A stretch of 34,774 bases of DNA. Origin: an uncultured Eubacteriales bacterium. Lineage in GTDB: Bacteria > Bacillota > Clostridia > Christensenellales > Aristaeellaceae. Location: NCBI GenBank assembly GCA_902796025.1, contig CADBNW010000003.1:1-34774 (forward strand). The letters are read 5' to 3'. The translations under genes were made by a program, and so were the position numbers. Positions 16,064 through 30,442 of the stretch are shown piece by piece. Numbering within the stretch: the stretch's first letter is position 1; each line of letters begins with the position of its first letter. The notes under the pieces were generated by a model that saw only the letters and a program-made list of their open reading frames with translations, searched no databases and was not told where the DNA came from.

Positions 16064-17545
16064 CTACCCTTGCTCATACTCCACCCTCTCTATCATCCCC
16101 CTGCCGCTGGAAAACCCGTCACGATTCACGTCGTCAAACGCCACGGCCTTGAGATACGGTTCTATCCTGTCCGGGGTGTTGCCGTTTATCCTTATGCGGC
16201 CCAGGTGCAGCTCTTCCAGCTTGCAGCTTACGTAGGGGTCGAAGATCTCGCATGTGCCCTCGTCCACCACGCAGGACTTGGGGCCTGCGCACAGCAGGTA
16301 GGAAAGGGGGTACTTTTCCCTGTGGAGGGTAAGGTCGATATTTTCAAAAAAGAGATGCTTTATGTTCGCGCCGATCTCAAAGGCGGCAAAGGCGCCGCGC
16401 ACGGGATCAGACTCGCGGTATTCCCGAAAGCCGTCGATGGGCCCGGCAAGGTCCACGCTGATGTCTTCAAAAAACAGCCAGTCGCCGCTGCCCGGCGCGC
16501 CGCGCTCCGGCTTTTGCGTGCGGAGCTTATAGCGCGGCGTCTGATAGTAGAGCTTGAAGGTGCGTATCCCGCGCACGTTTTTTACGATGATCCCGTCCAG
16601 CGCACAGTCCACCCAGGAGCCGTCGTCGTAATAGTAGATCCCGGGCTGGATGCGCATGGCTTTGTAGGGGCTGGACGCCGAAAGCTCCAGATTTTCGCAC
16701 AGGATACAGCGCATGGGGCCGAAGTTTACGGAGGAGTTTTGCCAGTCGTAGGCGTTCAGGGCCACGAGGTCGTCCCCGCACTGGCCGTGGATATCGCATA
16801 TCCACGCGCGGTCGATATTGCCGTTCAAGTGCAGGCCGTCCGCATAGCACTGGTCAAAGGCGATGTTGCCCATCACCGCGTTTTGCAGATCCCCGCACTG
16901 CACCGCAAAGCCGGCCATGTGGGCAAAGGTCATGTTTTGCAGGGTAAGGCCGGAAAGATTGTTGAACAGCATCGCGGTAGAGACCCCGTAAAAGCTTCGC
17001 TCCTCGTCGATCATGCCGGTTTTGCCGTAGCCGGCGCGCACGTCCATGCTCTCCTCCCAGCGCCCGCCGGTGATGCAGATGTTGTGATCGCGCACAGGGG
17101 CGGAAATGGGGGCGTGCGTCCCGTCCGCGACGTGCCGGTTTCGAAGCATCAGGGTCCTGATCCCCTTTTTGAGGCGGATCACCGCGCCGTCCTCCGCCTC
17201 GATACGGCGATCCGAGGGGATCAGGATCGAGCGGTCGATATAGTACGGCTCCTCCGCGCGGGGGATAAAAACGATCTCGTTTTCGTCAAGCGCCGCTTGA
17301 AGGGCCTCCGACCAGACGCTGATCTTTTGCCCGTCCTGCTGGGACGGCCGCACAAGCGCCCGGTAATCGGCAAGGGAAGCCCGCTTTGTAAGCCTTGCCT
17401 GCGCGGCGGCATTATCCTGCCGCATTTTTGCAAGCGCGTCATAGATCTCCGCCTTTTTGGGGTGCATCGCGCGCCCGCTCGTCGTGTCGTCGTTCATGCC
17501 TTTGTCCCCACTTTCCTCGTTTGTTTCAGTCGCAGGATCAGTCAT
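16064..17545 (-). CDS. Right-handed beta-helix (pectate lyase/GH28-like) protein
   Basis: The 493-residue product starts at ATG 17545 with AGGAGG about 7 nt upstream. That ATG overlaps the stop of the upstream MmeI-like gene (ATGA). The N-terminus is polar with no signal peptide. From about residue 60 it follows the pectin-lyase superfamily: YYIDRSILIPSDRRIEAEDG, ICITGG, a run of short coils (LSGLTLQNMTFAHMAG), then ADGLHLNG and DIHGQCGDDLVALNA, the GH28-like active-site region with two adjacent Asp. It probably cleaves or isomerises a cytoplasmic uronate-containing oligosaccharide. Its base composition matches the host, unlike the upstream genes. Confidence 0.82.
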   Translation of the reverse strand: MTDPATETNEESGDKGMNDDTTSGRAMHPKKAEIYDALAKMRQDNAAAQARLTKRASLADYRALVRPSQQDGQKISVWSEALQAALDENEIVFIPRAEEPYYIDRSILIPSDRRIEAEDGAVIRLKKGIRTLMLRNRHVADGTHAPISAPVRDHNICITGGRWEESMDVRAGYGKTGMIDEERSFYGVSTAMLFNNLSGLTLQNMTFAHMAGFAVQCGDLQNAVMGNIAFDQCYADGLHLNGNIDRAWICDIHGQCGDDLVALNAYDWQNSSVNFGPMRCILCENLELSASSPYKAMRIQPGIYYYDDGSWVDCALDGIIVKNVRGIRTFKLYYQTPRYKLRTQKPERGAPGSGDWLFFEDISVDLAGPIDGFREYRESDPVRGAFAAFEIGANIKHLFFENIDLTLHREKYPLSYLLCAGPKSCVVDEGTCEIFDPYVSCKLEELHLGRIRINGNTPDRIEPYLKAVAFDDVNRDGFSSGRGMIERVEYEQG

Positions 17546-18792
17546 TTGCCGCCCTCCTGGGCGGTCAGGGCCTGATAGCGGCGCATCAGCTCCGCCACGC
17601 AGGCGGATTCGGACTTGAAGGCCGGATGATTTTTGTCGATGCCGTAGGCCTCCATCACGGCCTTGTCGTTTTGCTGGTGCGCGGTGCGCAGCTCCGGCGG
17701 CATGGTGAGATCGTCGTAGAGATCGGCAAGGCTGCAATCGGGATACAGGGCGCGGGCGTCCAGGATGGCCTGCGCAGTCTGTTCGATCTTCGCCTTCTGC
17801 TCCTCCGTGGCCTCCGGCCAGGGGAAGTTGTTGTAGACGATGTCCTTGCTGTAGCGGTAGTCGCTTTTCAGCCGCCCGCACACCGTGCGCATCCACGCCA
17901 TGTGGACGTTGGAGGTCAATACGCCGAAGTGGTAGAGGGTGGCGGTGGGTATCAAAAATAATAGGTCACTGGCAATAACATCACAATTCAGGAAACCTAA
18001 TGGGATATATCTCCGACGTTCTGATGACGTTTTGGGAACGGCGATATAGCTTCCTTCTGTTGGTTGAGCGATTTGACAGAACAACGTTGGAGTTTCTGCA
18101 AATTTTCTTGTGCCTGCCGCTTTGCTCGATAGTCTCGTATTTCTGACATGCTCAATTCTGGCTTTCACCATTGGACATTTCGCAATTTCTGAAGGATTTG
18201 CCCTCAGTAACCAAAGGCAATATCTCTTTTTATTGTTAAGAAACTCTTCTGCACCTAAATAGAGATGTATCCATTTTTCTGATATGGGCTCTTTTGAGAT
18301 TAGTTCTTCTTTCTGTTCTTCACTTAGAATAAATCCTCCTCCGTCTCTTGGCATGCTTCCAAAGCGCATTGCAGGAACGTTACATAAAGGTGTAGACCGG
18401 CTATCGATAATAGCGGTAGGTGCATTCGTCAAGTATTGATTGATGTTGTCAACTTGCTTTTGTATGCCCGCAGCATCAAACAATACCGCGTATGCCTTTT
18501 TGATATATGAAAAACCAACAATGATGCAATGCACATGCGCCTTAATCGCTGCCTCGCTGTCCCATCTAAAGGTCTGATGAGCAAAATTGATATAAACACC
18601 CTGTTGAATTAGGTTTGCCCATAGTGTGGTTGCCTGTTGCCCTTGGCATATTGAATTTGTGGAAACGAATGCAGATTGAATACTTGTACCATACATAAGA
18701 TCAAGTGGACCCGCGTCTGGTTTGTGCCATCCCAGCCATGCGGCCTCATGACATAACCATGTTTGAACAAAAGATGATTTCGATAGAATCAT
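17542..18792 (-). pseudogene. C-terminal half of an MmeI-like (type IIG/IIL) restriction-methylation protein
   Basis: The 416 codons match the C-terminal half of MmeI-family class I SAM-dependent DNA methyltransferases. The start AFVSTNSICQGQQ follows the catalytic domain, then FAHQTFRWDSEA, a target-recognition region, and the conserved LYHFGVLTSNVHMAWMRTVC plus DYRYSKDIVYNNFPWP. The nuclease domain, SAM motif and NPPY-type catalytic motif are all missing. Residues 1-30 (LCHEAAWLGWHKPDAG) do not look like MmeI. AGAGG lies about 8 nt before ATG 18792, so translation is possible. The last about 135 codons are GC-rich like the host and the rest are AT-richer; the change falls near 17950 in a conserved motif. 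A free-standing recognition subunit is possible but less likely. Confidence 0.75.
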
Positions 18793-20755
18793 TCAAGTAC
18801 CTCTTCACTAATACTTTTTCAGCTACAAGTCAGCATCTAGATTCACTCTTTGAACTTCCCCATTACTTTTTTATCTGTCACCCATCCATTAACCAATTCA
18901 GAAAGAAACAAGAAGGGTTGAATGAACGATAGGCTCTCCATCTCTCAATTCCAAAGACACCCCTTTTACCATCATGCCGCTTTCAATACAGCAGTTGAAT
19001 GCATTCCGATAGGCTTCAATTTCCTCATTGATTGCCAGTCGTTTGATGCTAGGGTTCAATGAAACGAAGACATAACCGACCCTATATCCTTCATCTAAGA
19101 GGTGTCTGAGCTTTATCAACTGGTCAATAGCTCGCTGTGAGTAAACTGAAGGAAATCGAGCCTCTCTGCCTTTTGCAAAGGACAAGATACTTTTTATCTC
19201 AACTACAGTCCTTGTGTCTTCAATATACAAATCACTTTTATATCCATTGATCTTGCATTCCCTCTTAACGAGTTTTCTCTTTCCCAGAAAACAAAAGCGT
19301 CTGCTGCCTATATTAACTGCCACAGCTTCATTGGCTTTTGACATATTCAAAAGGATAAAACCATGATTTCCAGATAAAGCAAATACTGAATATTTTGTTC
19401 TAGCGTTGGGTGACGATACTGGCGAAACCAATACTTCTCTTCCTGTAAGATCAATGAAGTTGCTGAGCCTACACGACGATGGAATATAGCAGAGAGTGTC
19501 TTCACCATCGATCTCAACAAGGCATAAAAACCTGTTTTTAAGTTCTTCCTTGAATATGCCATGCTTGAAAGATTGTTCCAACACTCTCAAACTCCTTCGT
19601 TTCCGCGGAACTACAGTTTTCCGTTAATTACGTCTTTCACAATTTCGTCTAATTCCGGGATCTCAATTAAATAGCCTTGTGCCCGCTCAACGGTATCACC
19701 ATTCTTATAGATCATATCGCCATGCTTTTGAAGGTATTGAGCATCTGGAGCCTCAATAATCATCCTCGATGAGATACCGTCGTTAACTCGCAAAGCAACA
19801 CGACCATTCAACTGAGCCTTTGTCGTTGATGGTACCAGTTTTGCTTCAGGTCGCTGAGTGCAAATAACCAGATGTATACCTCTACTTCTCCCAGCCTGAG
19901 CGATTCGTTGTACGGGTTTATAGAATGCATTTTGCTCTTTTTTCGTTTCAAGCTGATCCGCAAGGTCTGCAAATTCATCGATCACTACTACAATAGGCGC
20001 GAGTTTCTCTGTAGCAATTTTATTGTATTCTACGATATTTGCGACCCTGGCTTCAGCTAACAGCTTTCCTCTACGCTCAGATTCCTCAAAGATTACATCT
20101 TTTATTACCCTCGTAGCCTCTACTGCATCGGAAATAACGCTTCCTGAATAAAGGTGTGGTAATCCTTCAAAATGTATAAAGTCCTCCAGCTTTGATGAGG
20201 AAAGCACCAATTGAAGGTCATCCTGAGTTGGATGGGTCATCAGTAAAGCTGCAAGCATCGTGAAGAGGAATACTGATTTCCCTGAACCTGTGCTGCCACC
20301 AACAAGCATATGTGGCAACTGCCCAAGATCTTCAATCAAATCCTTCCCATTCGGAGTCCTCCCAAGAGGGAAGTATAACTGCTCAGGTGAAGTAACCTTT
20401 GGAAGACAAGCAATAACGTCCTTAAAGAGAACCTTTTCTCTCTTTAACCTAGGTACATCTAAGAGCAATTCATCAGAGTTCGGCTCCTGTTGGATAATTA
20501 CACCAGTACGCTTCATTTCCCTCCCGATGTCCTCTAAATGGCTGGACAGTCCCTGAAGCGATTGACCTCTTCCAAGCCTGAATTTGAGCCTTATCACGCT
20601 TGGCCCAACAACTGTATCCTCTGGATTACATTCCTTCAGAGACACATGATAATCCCCGCATGAGCGCTTAAAATCCTTAACCAGTTGTTCAATCTCTTTG
20701 CGACTGACACTATTGTTTGTATCTATTTGAGTCGCAGGAGATACGGTATCTGATG
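17950..20755. other. AT-richer inserted or recombined segment inside an MmeI-like gene
   Basis: Base composition changes abruptly near 17950 and near 20755. Outside these points lie GC-rich remains of what appears to be one MmeI-like gene: promoter, ribosome site and first codons at 20851-20756, and the C-terminal codons at 17950-17542. Inside lie the FtsK-like gene, the SfsA-like gene and an AT-rich MmeI middle part. No transposase, integrase or flanking repeats were seen, so homologous recombination on one side and illegitimate joining on the other is the best fit. An assembly chimera cannot be excluded. Confidence 0.6.
18898..19584 (-). CDS. SfsA-like DNA/RNA nuclease-fold protein
   Basis: The 228-residue protein aligns by eye along its length with SfsA. 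It has an N-terminal OB-like part (FLCLVEIDGEDTLCYIPSSC..., where SfsA has HCPNTG), a middle GFILLNMSKANE region, then the nuclease core YKSDLYIED followed by VVEIKSILSF, an Asp...Glu-x-Lys arrangement, and VYSQRAIDQL where SfsA has TERGQKHL. SfsA proteins are nucleases, although the name comes from sugar fermentation. I chose GTG 19584 because AAGGAG lies 7 nt upstream; the TTG two codons earlier sits too close to it. It follows the FtsK-like gene after 26 bp, which suggests a joint role in DNA processing or defence. Confidence 0.75.
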   Translation of the reverse strand: MLEQSFKHGIFKEELKNRFLCLVEIDGEDTLCYIPSSCRLSNFIDLTGREVLVSPVSSPNARTKYSVFALSGNHGFILLNMSKANEAVAVNIGSRRFCFLGKRKLVKRECKINGYKSDLYIEDTRTVVEIKSILSFAKGREARFPSVYSQRAIDQLIKLRHLLDEGYRVGYVFVSLNPSIKRLAINEEIEAYRNAFNCCIESGMMVKGVSLELRDGEPIVHSTLLVSF

Positions 20756-20801
20756 CTTCGCCGCCGCCCGCTGCTGTACGTCGTTCATGGTAGCCCTCCA
20801 T
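19611..20801 (-). CDS. FtsK/SpoIIIE-type DNA translocase motor, 5'-truncated
   Basis: Up to 396 codons are open. From about residue 33 the chain is an FtsK-type motor: an alpha/beta entry region, Walker A GGSTGSGKS (168-176), Walker B VVVIDEFADL (about 271-280) and TQRPEAKLVP. There are no membrane segments and no gamma DNA-recognition domain. The first about 16 residues (MEGYHERRTAAGGGEA) are an out-of-frame reading of a GC-rich MmeI-like gene start, and ATG 20801 has no Shine-Dalgarno. So the native N-terminus and start were lost at the junction near 20755. Homologues with this motor are often longer and act in plasmid transfer or anti-phage islands. The motor looks intact, but expression is doubtful. 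Confidence 0.82.
   Translation of the reverse strand: MEGYHERRTAAGGGEASDTVSPATQIDTNNSVSRKEIEQLVKDFKRSCGDYHVSLKECNPEDTVVGPSVIRLKFRLGRGQSLQGLSSHLEDIGREMKRTGVIIQQEPNSDELLLDVPRLKREKVLFKDVIACLPKVTSPEQLYFPLGRTPNGKDLIEDLGQLPHMLVGGSTGSGKSVFLFTMLAALLMTHPTQDDLQLVLSSSKLEDFIHFEGLPHLYSGSVISDAVEATRVIKDVIFEESERRGKLLAEARVANIVEYNKIATEKLAPIVVVIDEFADLADQLETKKEQNAFYKPVQRIAQAGRSRGIHLVICTQRPEAKLVPSTTKAQLNGRVALRVNDGISSRMIIEAPDAQYLQKHGDMIYKNGDTVERAQGYLIEIPELDEIVKDVINGKL
20723..20788 (-). pseudogene. 5' stub of an MmeI-like gene
   Basis: ATG 20788 has GGAGGG 5 nt upstream and a good promoter. It opens MNDVQQRAAAK, the kind of N-terminus I associate with MmeI-family proteins. After that, HQIPYLLRLK and a stop at 20723 come from the adjoining AT-rich DNA. 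About 11 codons remain; the C-terminal end of probably the same gene is found 2.8 kb further on, at 17542. Confidence 0.55.
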
Positions 20802-20822
20802 AAACAGTTAAGAGTTAAGTTG

Positions 20823-20851
20823 ATTATAGCATAAAACGGGAGGGGGGACAA
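20823..20851 (-). promoter_or_regulatory. Promoter of the interrupted MmeI-like gene, now driving the FtsK-SfsA run
   Basis: On the minus strand, TTGTCC (20846-20851) and TATAAT (20823-20828) are separated by 17 bp. The -35 box lies inside a G-run-rich tract. Confidence 0.65.
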
Positions 20852-21949: not shown

Positions 21950-22171
21950 TCATTTCAGTTTTGAATTGAAGTATTCCTTGCTGACCTGAAGCTGGCGGTT
22001 CAGAATGGTCTTCCACAGGTGCCCGTTGATCTGCCCCGGGTTTTTGGAAACCTTGGTCAGGCGGATATTGCCATCCGCATCCCGTTTGCGAAAATAGTAA
22101 TGGTCTGTTTGCTTATACAGCTCCCAGCCGTCGTGCTCGCAAAAGCGCTTCAGATCTTTCCAGCTTGGCAT
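21950..22171 (-). CDS. HicA/YcfA-like mRNA-interferase toxin
   Basis: This 73-residue basic protein has the HicA layout: a short helix, then GWELYKQTDHYYFRK with the glycine and the catalytic-type His24, then beta strands and a C-terminal IxGHLWKTILNR where HicA has its GTLxxILKQ-like helix. HicA toxins cleave mRNA. The start lies inside the last 22 bp of the antitoxin gene, giving tight coupling. Its 3' end merges with repeat copy 3. Confidence 0.75.
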   Translation of the reverse strand: MPSWKDLKRFCEHDGWELYKQTDHYYFRKRDADGNIRLTKVSKNPGQINGHLWKTILNRQLQVSKEYFNSKLK

Positions 22172-22578
22172 TGAATGCTGTCTCCGATCTTATGGATGTC
22201 TCCGATAAACAGCGCCTTGAATACATACGGGATATGCGCCCTGCGATTTGGCGCACTGCTCCAATAGGAGAAATCGTTGTAATAATCCTCGGCGTATTCA
22301 AGGATCGCTTTTGCAAGCTTCTCGCGCGCTTCCGCTTCGTCCCTGCCGTTTTCCACAAGGTCGATCTCGTTGAGCGCAAGGGTCACAGACCCGTCCTCCT
22401 CATCCATCCGCAGCGCCGAATAGGAATACCCTTTCAGCAGCTCCTCCATAAAGCGAAGATCCGAAAGAAAGATATAGTCCCGCGTCCGCTTAAAGAACTG
22501 CGGTTTTGTTCTGACCGTATTATCTACAACGGCGCTCCAATCTCTGCGAACATCGGTCGCGTTCATGACCTCGATCAT
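22150..22578 (-). CDS. Antitoxin partner of the HicA-like toxin
   Basis: The 142-residue protein starts at ATG 22578 with GGAGGTGG about 6 nt upstream. The N-terminal about 50 residues (MNATDVRRDWSAVVD, RTRDYIFLSDL) look like a Phd/YefM-type DNA-binding dimerisation part. The rest (DGSVTLALNEIDLVENGRD, AREKLAKAILEYAEDYY) resembles the degraded RNase H fold of HicB antitoxins. It probably binds the toxin and represses the operon through the palindromes at the promoter. Such two-part antitoxins beside YcfA-like toxins are familiar in clostridia. Confidence 0.7.
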   Translation of the reverse strand: MIEVMNATDVRRDWSAVVDNTVRTKPQFFKRTRDYIFLSDLRFMEELLKGYSYSALRMDEEDGSVTLALNEIDLVENGRDEAEAREKLAKAILEYAEDYYNDFSYWSSAPNRRAHIPYVFKALFIGDIHKIGDSIQCQAGKI

Positions 22579-22600
22579 TATTTCCACCTCCCGCAAAACT

Positions 22601-22648
22601 ATAATATCACATAGTGCACACAATGTCAAGTATGTACATTATGTACAT
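22601..22648 (-). promoter_or_regulatory. Toxin-antitoxin promoter with palindromic operator
   Basis: On the minus strand, TTGACA (22624-22629) and TATTAT (22601-22606) are separated by 17 bp. Just upstream, two copies of the self-complementary ATGTACAT (22632-22639 and 22641-22648) form one large palindrome. This fits an autoregulatory operator bound by the antitoxin. Confidence 0.75.
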
Positions 22649-28759: not shown

Positions 28760-30442
28760 TTACTCGAGTTTCGTACCGCACTCAGGACAGAACTTCATCG
28801 TCATCCCTTCCGGAACCTCATAGCCACAGTTGGTACATGCCTGCCCTTGCGGGCGGGGGGTTCCACATTCAAAGCAGAATTTTCCTCGGTTCATTTCTGT
28901 TCCGCACTCAGGGCAAGTCCAAGTATCATTGCCTTGTGCATTAGTATTTGGTTCCTGGGTTGGTGCAGGTACATCAAATGCCTTAACAACAAACTTGATG
29001 TTCTCTTCAGTACAGTGCGCTTCAGCGGTTGATCCTGCAGGAGCATAGACAGTCAATGCGTCACCACAAAAACCGAATACTCCCCATCTGTCGAAACTCG
29101 TGTATGGGTTCTTGATGTTGACAGTTGTCAAGTGCTCATCCCAGTCGAAGACCCCATCACCAAGCGAAAGACAGGAATACGGTATTGTTACGATAGTCAA
29201 GGAATCGCATGAACTAAAGGCGTGATAATCGAGGCTCACAAGACCTTCTGGTAAGTCAATCGTTGTAATCTTGTCACAGCCACTAAATGCGGAGCTTCCA
29301 ATAGTAATCAATGTGCTGGGGAACGTTATTGAAACAAGATTCTTGTTGTACAAGAAGGCATATTCCCCGATAGTAGTTACACCTTCTGGGATAACGTAGG
29401 CATTCTTAGTCGCAGCTGGCGGAAAAGCAACAAGAGTCGTCATGTCGTCACTGAACAAAACACCGTCAACTGAGGTAAATGCCGTTGAACCTTCCGCCAC
29501 TTCAATACGAGTCAGCTTTGAACATGATTCAAACATATCGTCCCCTAATGAGATTAACGAGGCGGGGAACACGATGGTGGTCAGAGATCGGCACTGATGG
29601 AATGCCGTGTTTCCAATCGACACAAGTCCTTCTGCAAAATTGATGGATGTCATCTTGCTACAGCCTGCAAACGCATCGTTTCCGATGGTTGTTACTGTAT
29701 TCGGGATCGTAATGCTGGTAATGTTCTCATTCCAATAAAACGCATAAGCAGCAATGCTGGTAACTGACTGCGGTACAGTAAAGCTGGGTATTGCTTTGCC
29801 GGCAGGATAACACATAAGGATTGTTTGATCTGCATTATAAAGAACTCCATCAACGGAGATGTAAGAGGGATTTCCAACTGCAACGTTAATCCCAGCTAGC
29901 CTGTCACATCCCTTGAAAACACGGTCATCACTTATACTCACTACGCTGGCAGGAATTGTCAGTTCGAGAATCGATTCACAATCCGCAAAGGCCAGTTCTT
30001 CGATGGTAGTCAACCCCTCTGGGAGGGTTAAGCTGTTCAAAGCTTTGCATCCATAGAAACACCATTTAGGAATAACAGTAACGCCAGTAGGAATGTTTAA
30101 AGATACGAGCTTGCTACAGTTCTCGAAGGCGTATTGTCCAATGCTCGCTACACTTTCAGGGAGTGACACTGTGGTCAGATTACGACACCAGTAGAAAGCA
30201 TACTCGCCAATGCTCGTAACTCCTTCTTCAATAACCACACTCTTGATATTATCACGCTGGTCTTTCCAAGGTATGCCACTACCATAGCTATATGAATCCA
30301 TTGGGCCAGTTCCTTGGATTGTTAGTACACCGGCATCGCTGAGTGTCCACGTGAGATTCGGCCCACATTTCTCATCAGCAAGAGCCAATCCAGCGACAAG
30401 GCACAGAATCAGTGTCAGCATCAAGATAGAAAGCCTCTTCAT
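28760..30442 (-). CDS. Secreted BspA-type leucine-rich repeat protein with C-terminal zinc ribbons
   Basis: This 560-residue protein begins with a signal peptide (MKRLSILMLTLILCLVAG..., cleavage near ALA). It then has about 15 LRR_5 repeats of roughly 23 residues (ITIPNTVTTIGNDAFAGCSK type), a Gln/Asn/Thr linker, and two short zinc ribbons in the last 53 residues (CPEC...CFEC and CTNC...CPEC, eight Cys). BspA-type repeats mediate adhesion to host or glycan surfaces. Zinc ribbons on an exported protein are uncommon. AGGAGG is 8 nt before ATG 30442. The start overlaps the stop of the AbiEi-like remnant. Codon use is AT-richer than in the flanks, suggesting acquisition. Confidence 0.88.
   Translation of the reverse strand: MKRLSILMLTLILCLVAGLALADEKCGPNLTWTLSDAGVLTIQGTGPMDSYSYGSGIPWKDQRDNIKSVVIEEGVTSIGEYAFYWCRNLTTVSLPESVASIGQYAFENCSKLVSLNIPTGVTVIPKWCFYGCKALNSLTLPEGLTTIEELAFADCESILELTIPASVVSISDDRVFKGCDRLAGINVAVGNPSYISVDGVLYNADQTILMCYPAGKAIPSFTVPQSVTSIAAYAFYWNENITSITIPNTVTTIGNDAFAGCSKMTSINFAEGLVSIGNTAFHQCRSLTTIVFPASLISLGDDMFESCSKLTRIEVAEGSTAFTSVDGVLFSDDMTTLVAFPPAATKNAYVIPEGVTTIGEYAFLYNKNLVSITFPSTLITIGSSAFSGCDKITTIDLPEGLVSLDYHAFSSCDSLTIVTIPYSCLSLGDGVFDWDEHLTTVNIKNPYTSFDRWGVFGFCGDALTVYAPAGSTAEAHCTEENIKFVVKAFDVPAPTQEPNTNAQGNDTWTCPECGTEMNRGKFCFECGTPRPQGQACTNCGYEVPEGMTMKFCPECGTKLE

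What the first reader, a model, noticed from the sequence alone, without database searches (positions are those of the whole stretch)
17542..20851. FtsK-SfsA module lodged inside an MmeI-like restriction-modification gene
A host-like promoter, ribosome site and the MmeI-type opening MNDVQQRAAAK (20788) are cut at about 20755. AT-richer DNA then carries a FtsK-type motor and an SfsA-like nuclease. An MmeI C-terminal half follows, and from about 17950 on it is GC-rich again. The first about 16 residues of the FtsK frame are a frame-shifted reading of the MmeI start, which proves a join. A dsDNA translocase plus nuclease next to MmeI is a plausible anti-phage or plasmid-processing module that I do not know as a described system.
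Basis: partly seen in the sequence, partly recalled or inferred. Interest (0 to 1): 0.72.

Follow-up and report, generated by a model that had tools for sequence, protein, structure and literature searches.

The report
Broken DndFGH remnant inside dead MmeI
The odd motor-plus-nuclease pair looks like the leftover tail end of a larger phage-defence operon stuck in a dead restriction gene, and following it up showed that the nuclease gene recurs beside that operon in other bacteria.

Summary
In detail: an MmeI-type start (to 20754), a FtsK-like ORF, an SfsA-like ORF, then MmeI residues ~542-920. But the FtsK ORF is not a free motor. It is the last 381 residues (91% identical) of a ~1590-aa DndH/SspH-type protein. 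The part with the REase-like motif is missing here, and no DndF or DndG relative was found in this genome (no positive control). MmeI is broken too: nuclease, spacer and most of the methyltransferase are gone. So this is a composite remnant of two defence genes. The GC step at ~17950 is an MmeI target-recognition-domain boundary shared by a relative. MmeI turned up in none of 30 stretches around the relatives. What is new is in the relatives: DruA(DUF4338)-DndF-DndG-DndH with an SfsA-type nuclease of a distinct clade. DndH precedes it in 12 of 14 loci found by SfsA (10 of 12 without duplicates). The 3 new loci followed from DndH searches all have SfsA and DruA; 3 haloarchaeal plasmids lack SfsA. 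DUF4338-DndF fusions are published (PMC10853773); my searches found no paper linking SfsA to DndFGH. Not shown: that SfsA acts in defence, or that the window pair works.

The parts
20754..20851 (-). MmeI promoter, ribosome site and first ~11 codons (ATG at 20788)
   Evidence: 73-94% identical to MmeI starts in 6 contigs of 5 genomes, matches ending at 20754 or 20753
20753..20760 (-). join 1: MmeI codon 11-12 to DndH residue ~1207, over a few shared bases
   Evidence: MmeI matches end at 20754/20753, the L040 DndH match starts at 20759; sequences printed
19611..20759 (-). 3' end of a dndH/sspH-type gene: HerA/FtsK ATPase domain, residues 1207-1587 of 1588; the first three quarters are missing
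   Evidence: 91% identity over 381 aa; PADLOC SspH 3.5e-65; GSTGSGKS, VVVIDE and CTQ motifs
18898..19590 (-). complete SfsA-type PD-(D/E)XK nuclease gene of the Dnd-linked clade, 230 aa
   Evidence: Pfam SfsA and SfsA_N above cut-off; D120, E131, K133 kept in 31 of 31 aligned rows; clade
18706..18897 (-). spacer of unassigned origin between the sfsA stop and the MmeI homology; join 2 lies at about 18705
   Evidence: no blastn match in the loci compared; MmeI homology starts at ORF residue 30-35 in 17 of 19 genomes
17542..18705 (-). 3' part of an MmeI-type (Type IIL) gene: end of methyltransferase, TRD, C-terminal bundle
   Evidence: aligned to 542-920 of a 921-aa relative, 57%; Pfam MmeI_Mtase 187-258 of 259, MmeI_TRD, MmeI_C
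17542..17960 (-). GC-rich, genus-like MmeI tail; the step is the TRD boundary, not an edge of the FtsK-SfsA piece
   Evidence: identity to same-genus L057 goes from 42-58% to 74-83% nt at codon ~280, and L057 has the same GC step

Best explanation
A composite of two broken defence genes. A DndFGH-type operon with a downstream sfsA-type nuclease gene came to lie in, or recombined into, an MmeI-type restriction-modification gene. An illegitimate join over a few shared bases then removed everything from MmeI codon ~12 to DndH codon ~1206: MmeI's nuclease half, DndF, DndG and three quarters of DndH. [quoted passage not shown] In the intact relatives the most likely mechanism is that proposed for DndFGH (PMC10853773): DndF and DndG, here with DruA, sense or bind invader DNA, the HerA/FtsK domain moves along it, and the DndH REase cuts it. 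I add that SfsA is probably a second nuclease that degrades or processes the cut DNA. Shown by sequence: both truncations, the parentage, the gene order in relatives, the kept nuclease motif. Inferred: the order of events, the deletion route, SfsA's role. The window copy most likely no longer restricts DNA.
For: DndH C-terminus 91% over residues 1207-1587 of a 1588-aa protein. Complete operon in 9 fetched loci, L042-L046, L048, L050-L052, 7 without duplicates; the first gene was family-tested in L042 and L048 only. REase-like D962 and E981-x-K983, present in at least 13 of 14 aligned DndH, lie outside the retained part. No DruA-DndF or DndG match in the own genome. The join lies inside coding genes at both ends with only a few shared bases. 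Other MmeI genes of the genus and family are broken too: own C10 keeps 36-38 tail residues, G002 about 20 start codons, G006 and G032 are cut before motif I.
Against: The retained FtsK and SfsA frames are open. Nonsynonymous distance to L042 equals that of L040 (0.053 and 0.053 for FtsK; 0.235 and 0.235 for SfsA; synonymous sites are saturated), so no decay is visible: the loss is recent or the pair is still used. An internal ATG at 20516 behind GGGAGGGAA could start the ATPase. The own-genome absence rests on a 246-contig, 94%-complete bin and two searches without a positive control. I found no relative with the operon inside an MmeI gene, so the order of events is inferred.
Confidence: 0.82

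Rival explanations
1. Assembly or library chimera: MmeI sequences, which repeat and often end contigs in these bins, were wrongly joined to a DndH-SfsA contig from another organism.
For: The genome is a 246-contig bin with 5.66% contamination. Several MmeI copies sit at contig edges: own C211, G005 C206/C228/C264, G006 C50. The module is AT-rich. None of 390 other genomes of the class matched DndH at 1e-60, and no match in 60 relatives spans a join.
Against: Both outer ends return to MmeI sequence in the right order and strand. The join shares only a few bases with either parent, far below a usual assembler overlap (inference).
Confidence: 0.13
2. A working, streamlined two-gene device: the HerA/FtsK ATPase and SfsA nuclease, now driven by the MmeI promoter, act together on foreign DNA without DndF, DndG and the REase domain.
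For: Both frames open, active-site and Walker motifs kept, no excess of nonsynonymous change. Relative L040 independently lost the end of DndF, DndG and the DndH N-terminus by an in-frame fusion but kept the REase-like motif, ATPase and SfsA.
Against: For SspFGH, loss of any one of the three genes abolished protection (PMC8092258, passages). The FtsK ORF begins in the MmeI leader, without a start of its own there. No second genome with the reduced pair was found among the loci examined.
Confidence: 0.07
3. SfsA is only a chance neighbour of DndH, carried in the same defence island.
For: SfsA lies on the opposite strand in G1107 and its frame is interrupted in G1563. The 3 haloarchaeal plasmids examined have no SfsA match. 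In L041 it sits near Pbe-like genes, in L112 beside a DUF1156-type methyltransferase, both without DndH.
Against: 12 of 14 loci found by SfsA have DndH directly upstream; stop-to-start distance is -3 to 29 bases in the 11 measured, window included. The 3 new loci followed from DndH searches, with DndH only 24-25% identical, also have it. The clade is separate from other SfsA.
Confidence: 0.2

Closest known systems
DndFGH restriction module with DUF4338-DndF fusion (Rakesh, Aravind, Krishnan 2024, PMC10853773; sections 20 and 22 and passages read)
   Same: Relatives carry the DUF4338 (DruA) domain fused to or beside DndF, a ~500-aa DndG, a ~1520-1590-aa DndH with REase-like motif and C-terminal HerA/FtsK
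   Different: Adds an SfsA-type nuclease, a word with 0 hits in that paper's main text (supplements not seen); the window keeps only the HerA/FtsK domain plus SfsA
SspFGH (PMC8092258, passages read)
   Same: PADLOC matches to SspF, SspH and, for the archaeal relative, SspG
   Different: No sspBCD genes recognised beside the relatives by eye or among 8 flank genes scanned; DruA and SfsA were not seen in the SspFGH passages
SfsA, PF03749 (PD-(D/E)XK prediction in PMC1189080, passages read; solved 4da2, 4dap)
   Same: OB-fold plus nuclease domain, same D...E-x-K motif
   Different: Separate clade (branch 1.92, support 1.0), 20-24% identical to 14 other SfsA; below the sfsA equivalog cut-off (76.5 against 126.45 bits)
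SfsA-like nuclease domain in Argonaute-linked proteins (PMC2743648, one passage read)
   Same: An SfsA-like PD-(D/E)XK domain proposed in a defence setting
   Different: Weak HHpred similarity (E 0.022 there), other partner genes, not compared here
MmeI / Type IIL (PMC4833311, passages read)
   Same: TRD and C-terminal bundle present
   Different: Nuclease (1-155), spacer and most of the methyltransferase missing
Druantia type I
   Same: DruA (DUF4338) present in the relatives
   Different: No DruE helicase noticed (not searched for); DruA goes with DndFGH instead (DruE as a hallmark is recalled)

Membership tests
DndFGH/SspFGH (the window locus) | all three genes dndF, dndG, dndH | tested here: not met
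   Only the last 381 aa of DndH; no DruA-DndF or DndG match in the own genome (no positive control)
DndFGH/SspFGH (relatives) | three-gene operon F-G-H | tested here: met
   F: SspF 8e-18; H: SspH 1.8e-63; G: no own family match, but profile match 99.9%, E 1e-34, to the archaeal protein that hits SspG 2.5e-12; order
DndFGH (relatives) | REase domain in DndH before HerA/FtsK | tested here: inconclusive
   D962 and E981-x-K983 in at least 13 of 14 DndH; the domain itself was not modelled
DndH (window fragment) | HerA/FtsK ATPase with intact Walker motifs | tested here: met
   GSTGSGKS, VVVIDE; Pfam 3.4e-31
Phosphorothioate-dependent restriction | dndBCDE or sspBCD partner genes | tested here: inconclusive
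   None recognised by eye in the flanks; one weak DndC-like ORF near L048 (3e-5); no systematic search
SfsA family | OB-fold + PD-(D/E)XK domain with D and E-x-K | tested here: met
   PF17746, PF03749 above cut-off; 31 of 31 rows keep D, E, K
sfsA equivalog (TIGR00230) | score at or above the curated cut-off | tested here: not met
   76.5 against 126.45 bits
MmeI / Type IIL RM enzyme | one chain with nuclease, methyltransferase and TRD | tested here: not met
   residues ~12-541 absent
Anti-phage system | protects cells from phage | not testable with these tools
   needs experiment

The most novel reading that the evidence does not exclude
A defence-specific SfsA clade is a second, separate nuclease component of DruA-DndFGH systems in Clostridia and their kin, and the window shows its translocase-nuclease end surviving on its own.
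Probability: 0.45. Interest if true: 0.6.

Novelty: new variant of a known kind. Interest (0 to 1): 0.42.

Why it matters
SfsA is a protein with a predicted nuclease fold (PMC1189080) and, as far as I recall, no settled role. A recurrent clade tied to DndFGH would give it a testable place in phage defence and add a component to DndFGH systems. The window itself shows how defence genes break and re-join, and how a free 'FtsK-nuclease system' can be inferred wrongly from a fragment.

Tried and rejected
Free-standing FtsK-SfsA system: rejected, because in 9 of the 12 DndH-bearing SfsA loci the FtsK match is the end of a 1574-1593-aa protein and in L049 of a 1518-aa one; L047 starts near a contig edge and L040 is a 1472-aa fusion.

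GC step at 17950 as a module edge: rejected.

Same-site insertion at MmeI codon 11 in relatives: G002 breaks about 10 codons later, and own C211 and both G005 starts run on to contig edges, so no shared target site is seen there.

Module as a mobile element that targets RM genes: MmeI lies in none of the 30 stretches tested. L042 has a truncated Type III mod gene downstream; L046 has a transposase there; I saw no RM gene by eye in L043 or L048. Terminal repeats were not searched for.

DNA patterns across join 1 and just before join 2 in viral contigs: 0 hits each. DndH in the class: 0 of 390 other genomes at 1e-60. SfsA in the order: 36 of 396 genomes including the own one, but of the comparison rows only G286 came near the Dnd-linked clade. 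Phages with DndH: 245 records, none covering 80%; the rows shown match only query residues 1169-1587. SfsA in plasmids: 2 records, ~25% identity. SfsA in viral contigs: 2 loci, of which L111 is identical to part of L051.

Rows dropped: 202 of 398 genomes rang; most listed frames are 700-1000 aa, which I take for cellular FtsK (inference). I followed only the two above 1500 aa (G845, G1107), left frames of 1000-1200 aa unlooked at, and the list was cut by the tool. In the SfsA tree, 4 of the 19 comparison loci L019-L037 gave no ORF match and fell out; L045, L050, L111 (duplicates) and L118 (broken frame) were left out. Of 6 plasmid records I opened 3.

Structure prediction was not used: the family matches were clear.

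Full report
Observation. The minus strand of 20851-17542 reads: MmeI-type promoter and start, FtsK ORF (20801-19611), SfsA ORF (19590-18898), MmeI-type ORF (18792-17542). Pfam assigns FtsK_SpoIIIE, SfsA with its OB domain, and the end of MmeI_Mtase, TRD and C-terminal domain. The MmeI leader matches six other contigs of five genomes, and each match stops at 20754 or 20753. The first 16 FtsK codons are MmeI leader read in another frame. The finding is real at sequence level; whether reads span the joins cannot be tested here.

What the FtsK is. PADLOC's best model is SspH, matched at 1185-1557 of 1561. A scan of a collection of 84,980 species genomes with the SfsA protein returned 14 loci. In 12 of them (not L041 and L053) a DndH-type gene lies directly before sfsA, and the window's FtsK matches its C-terminus (85-92% in 11; 32% in L049). 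L053 begins at a contig end; L041 has no DndH match. L044/L045 and L050/L051 are over 99.9% identical, so the distinct count is 10 of 12. Against the 1588-aa protein of L042 the window aligns from residue 1207 to 1587 at 91%. In 14 aligned DndH proteins D962 and E981-x-K983, which I read as the REase motif, are present in at least 13 and lie outside the part kept here. The window therefore holds the HerA/FtsK domain alone.

The parent operon. In nine loci (seven without duplicates) the order is: 1195-1206-aa protein, ~500-aa protein, ~1580-aa DndH, ~228-aa SfsA. In L042 and L048 the first protein was tested: DruA/DUF4338 N-terminally, SspF-like after it. The ~500-aa protein has no family match itself, but its profile matches the corresponding haloarchaeal protein (probability 99.9%, E 1e-34), which hits SspG. 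DruA is a separate gene in L049, G845, G1107, G1563 and the three haloarchaeal plasmids. Rakesh et al. 2024 (PMC10853773; sections 20 and 22 and passages read) describe DndF with an N-terminal DUF4338 domain and DndH with REase and HerA/FtsK, and propose DndFGH as a stand-alone counter-invader system. 'SfsA' does not occur in its main text.

Is SfsA part of it? The 14 loci were found through SfsA, so they are biased. Searches by the SspH model and by DndH gave three new loci that I followed: G845, G1107 and G1563, with DndH only 24-25% identical to L042. All three have an SfsA of this kind next to DndH, and a DruA gene. In G1107 sfsA points the other way; in G1563 its frame is interrupted. The three haloarchaeal plasmids have DruA-F-G-H and no SfsA match. 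In the tree, 16 SfsA of the window's kind (13 with DndH, plus L041, L053, L112) and G286's SfsA at their base are separated from 14 other SfsA of the order by a long, fully supported branch. D120, E131 and K133 are kept in 31 of 31 rows, matching the nuclease motif predicted for SfsA in PMC1189080 (passages read). Members also sit near PbeA/PbeC-like and methylase genes (L041) and beside a DUF1156-type methyltransferase in a viral contig (L112).

Literature. None of the 12 papers holding at least two of SfsA, DndH, SspH, DndFGH and DptH contained SfsA. Searches gave no link, nor did the 10 papers shown of 671. Two passages bear on it: PMC1189080 notes an SfsA in a cluster with two COG4127 nuclease candidates in Dehalococcoides, and PMC2743648 an SfsA-like nuclease domain in proteins linked to Argonautes. 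Supplements were not seen, and most preprints and subscription papers are not held.

What happened to MmeI. The window keeps codons 1-11 and residues ~542-920. By the published MmeI map (PMC4833311, passages read) the nuclease, spacer and most of the methyltransferase are gone, so it should neither cut nor methylate. In 17 of 19 matching genomes homology starts at ORF residue 30-35. The AT-rich TRD is nearest to other families (72% aa to G280), while the tail is genus-like; same-genus L057 shows the same step. That looks like an ordinary TRD exchange, separate from the module. Other MmeI copies in the genus and family are broken too.

How it arose and whether it works. The simplest path is an operon lodged in or recombined with MmeI, then an illegitimate join over a few shared bases. 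No relative shows the intermediate, so this is inferred. FtsK and SfsA show no excess of nonsynonymous change, and an internal ATG at 20516 has a good ribosome site, so residual expression is possible. Without DndF, DndG and the REase, restriction is unlikely: for SspFGH, deleting any one of the three genes abolished protection (PMC8092258, passages read).

Verdict. A wreck of known parts at the given coordinates, but it points to a recurrent SfsA neighbour of DruA-DndFGH systems for which my searches found no report.

Noticed in passing
L064 857-2038 (G006:C34), L065 128-1420 (G032:C41), L057 4496-6274 (G006:C50): MmeI genes cut at the same codon, just before methyltransferase motif I (ASLTFL|DPACGSGNF): two N-terminal halves and one C-terminal half. 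Looks like a site-specific integration target.
   Followed up: partly
G000:C10:877-990 (L113); L061 5271-5340 (G002:C35): Further MmeI wrecks: only 36-38 tail residues in the own genome, and about 20 start codons followed by unrelated DNA in a same-genus genome.
   Followed up: partly
L040 5559-9977: In-frame fusion of DruA-DndF residues 1-720 to DndH residues 827-1587 before SfsA, with DndG absent: an independent shortened version that keeps the REase-like motif.
   Followed up: partly
L041 1663-10693; L112 5772-8657: SfsA of the same clade near PbeA/PbeC-like and methylase genes, and beside a DUF1156-type methyltransferase in a viral contig.
   Followed up: partly
L066 912-2744; L070 16219-19490: A Lamassu LmuB-like gene (L066) and ABC-3C/LmuB-like genes (L070) lie directly upstream of the DruA-DndFGH operon, with a short HTH-like ORF (by eye) between in L070.
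   Followed up: partly
L042 11014-15095: A Type III mod-like gene without its start and a ResIII gene follow SfsA.
   Followed up: no
window 28760-30442: A second AT-rich stretch carries a 560-aa repeat protein with a zinc-ribbon-like end (family recalled, not tested).
   Followed up: no
window 21950-22629: PHD-like antitoxin ORF (Pfam 8e-31) overlapping a 73-aa ORF: a possible toxin-antitoxin pair near the remnant.
   Followed up: no
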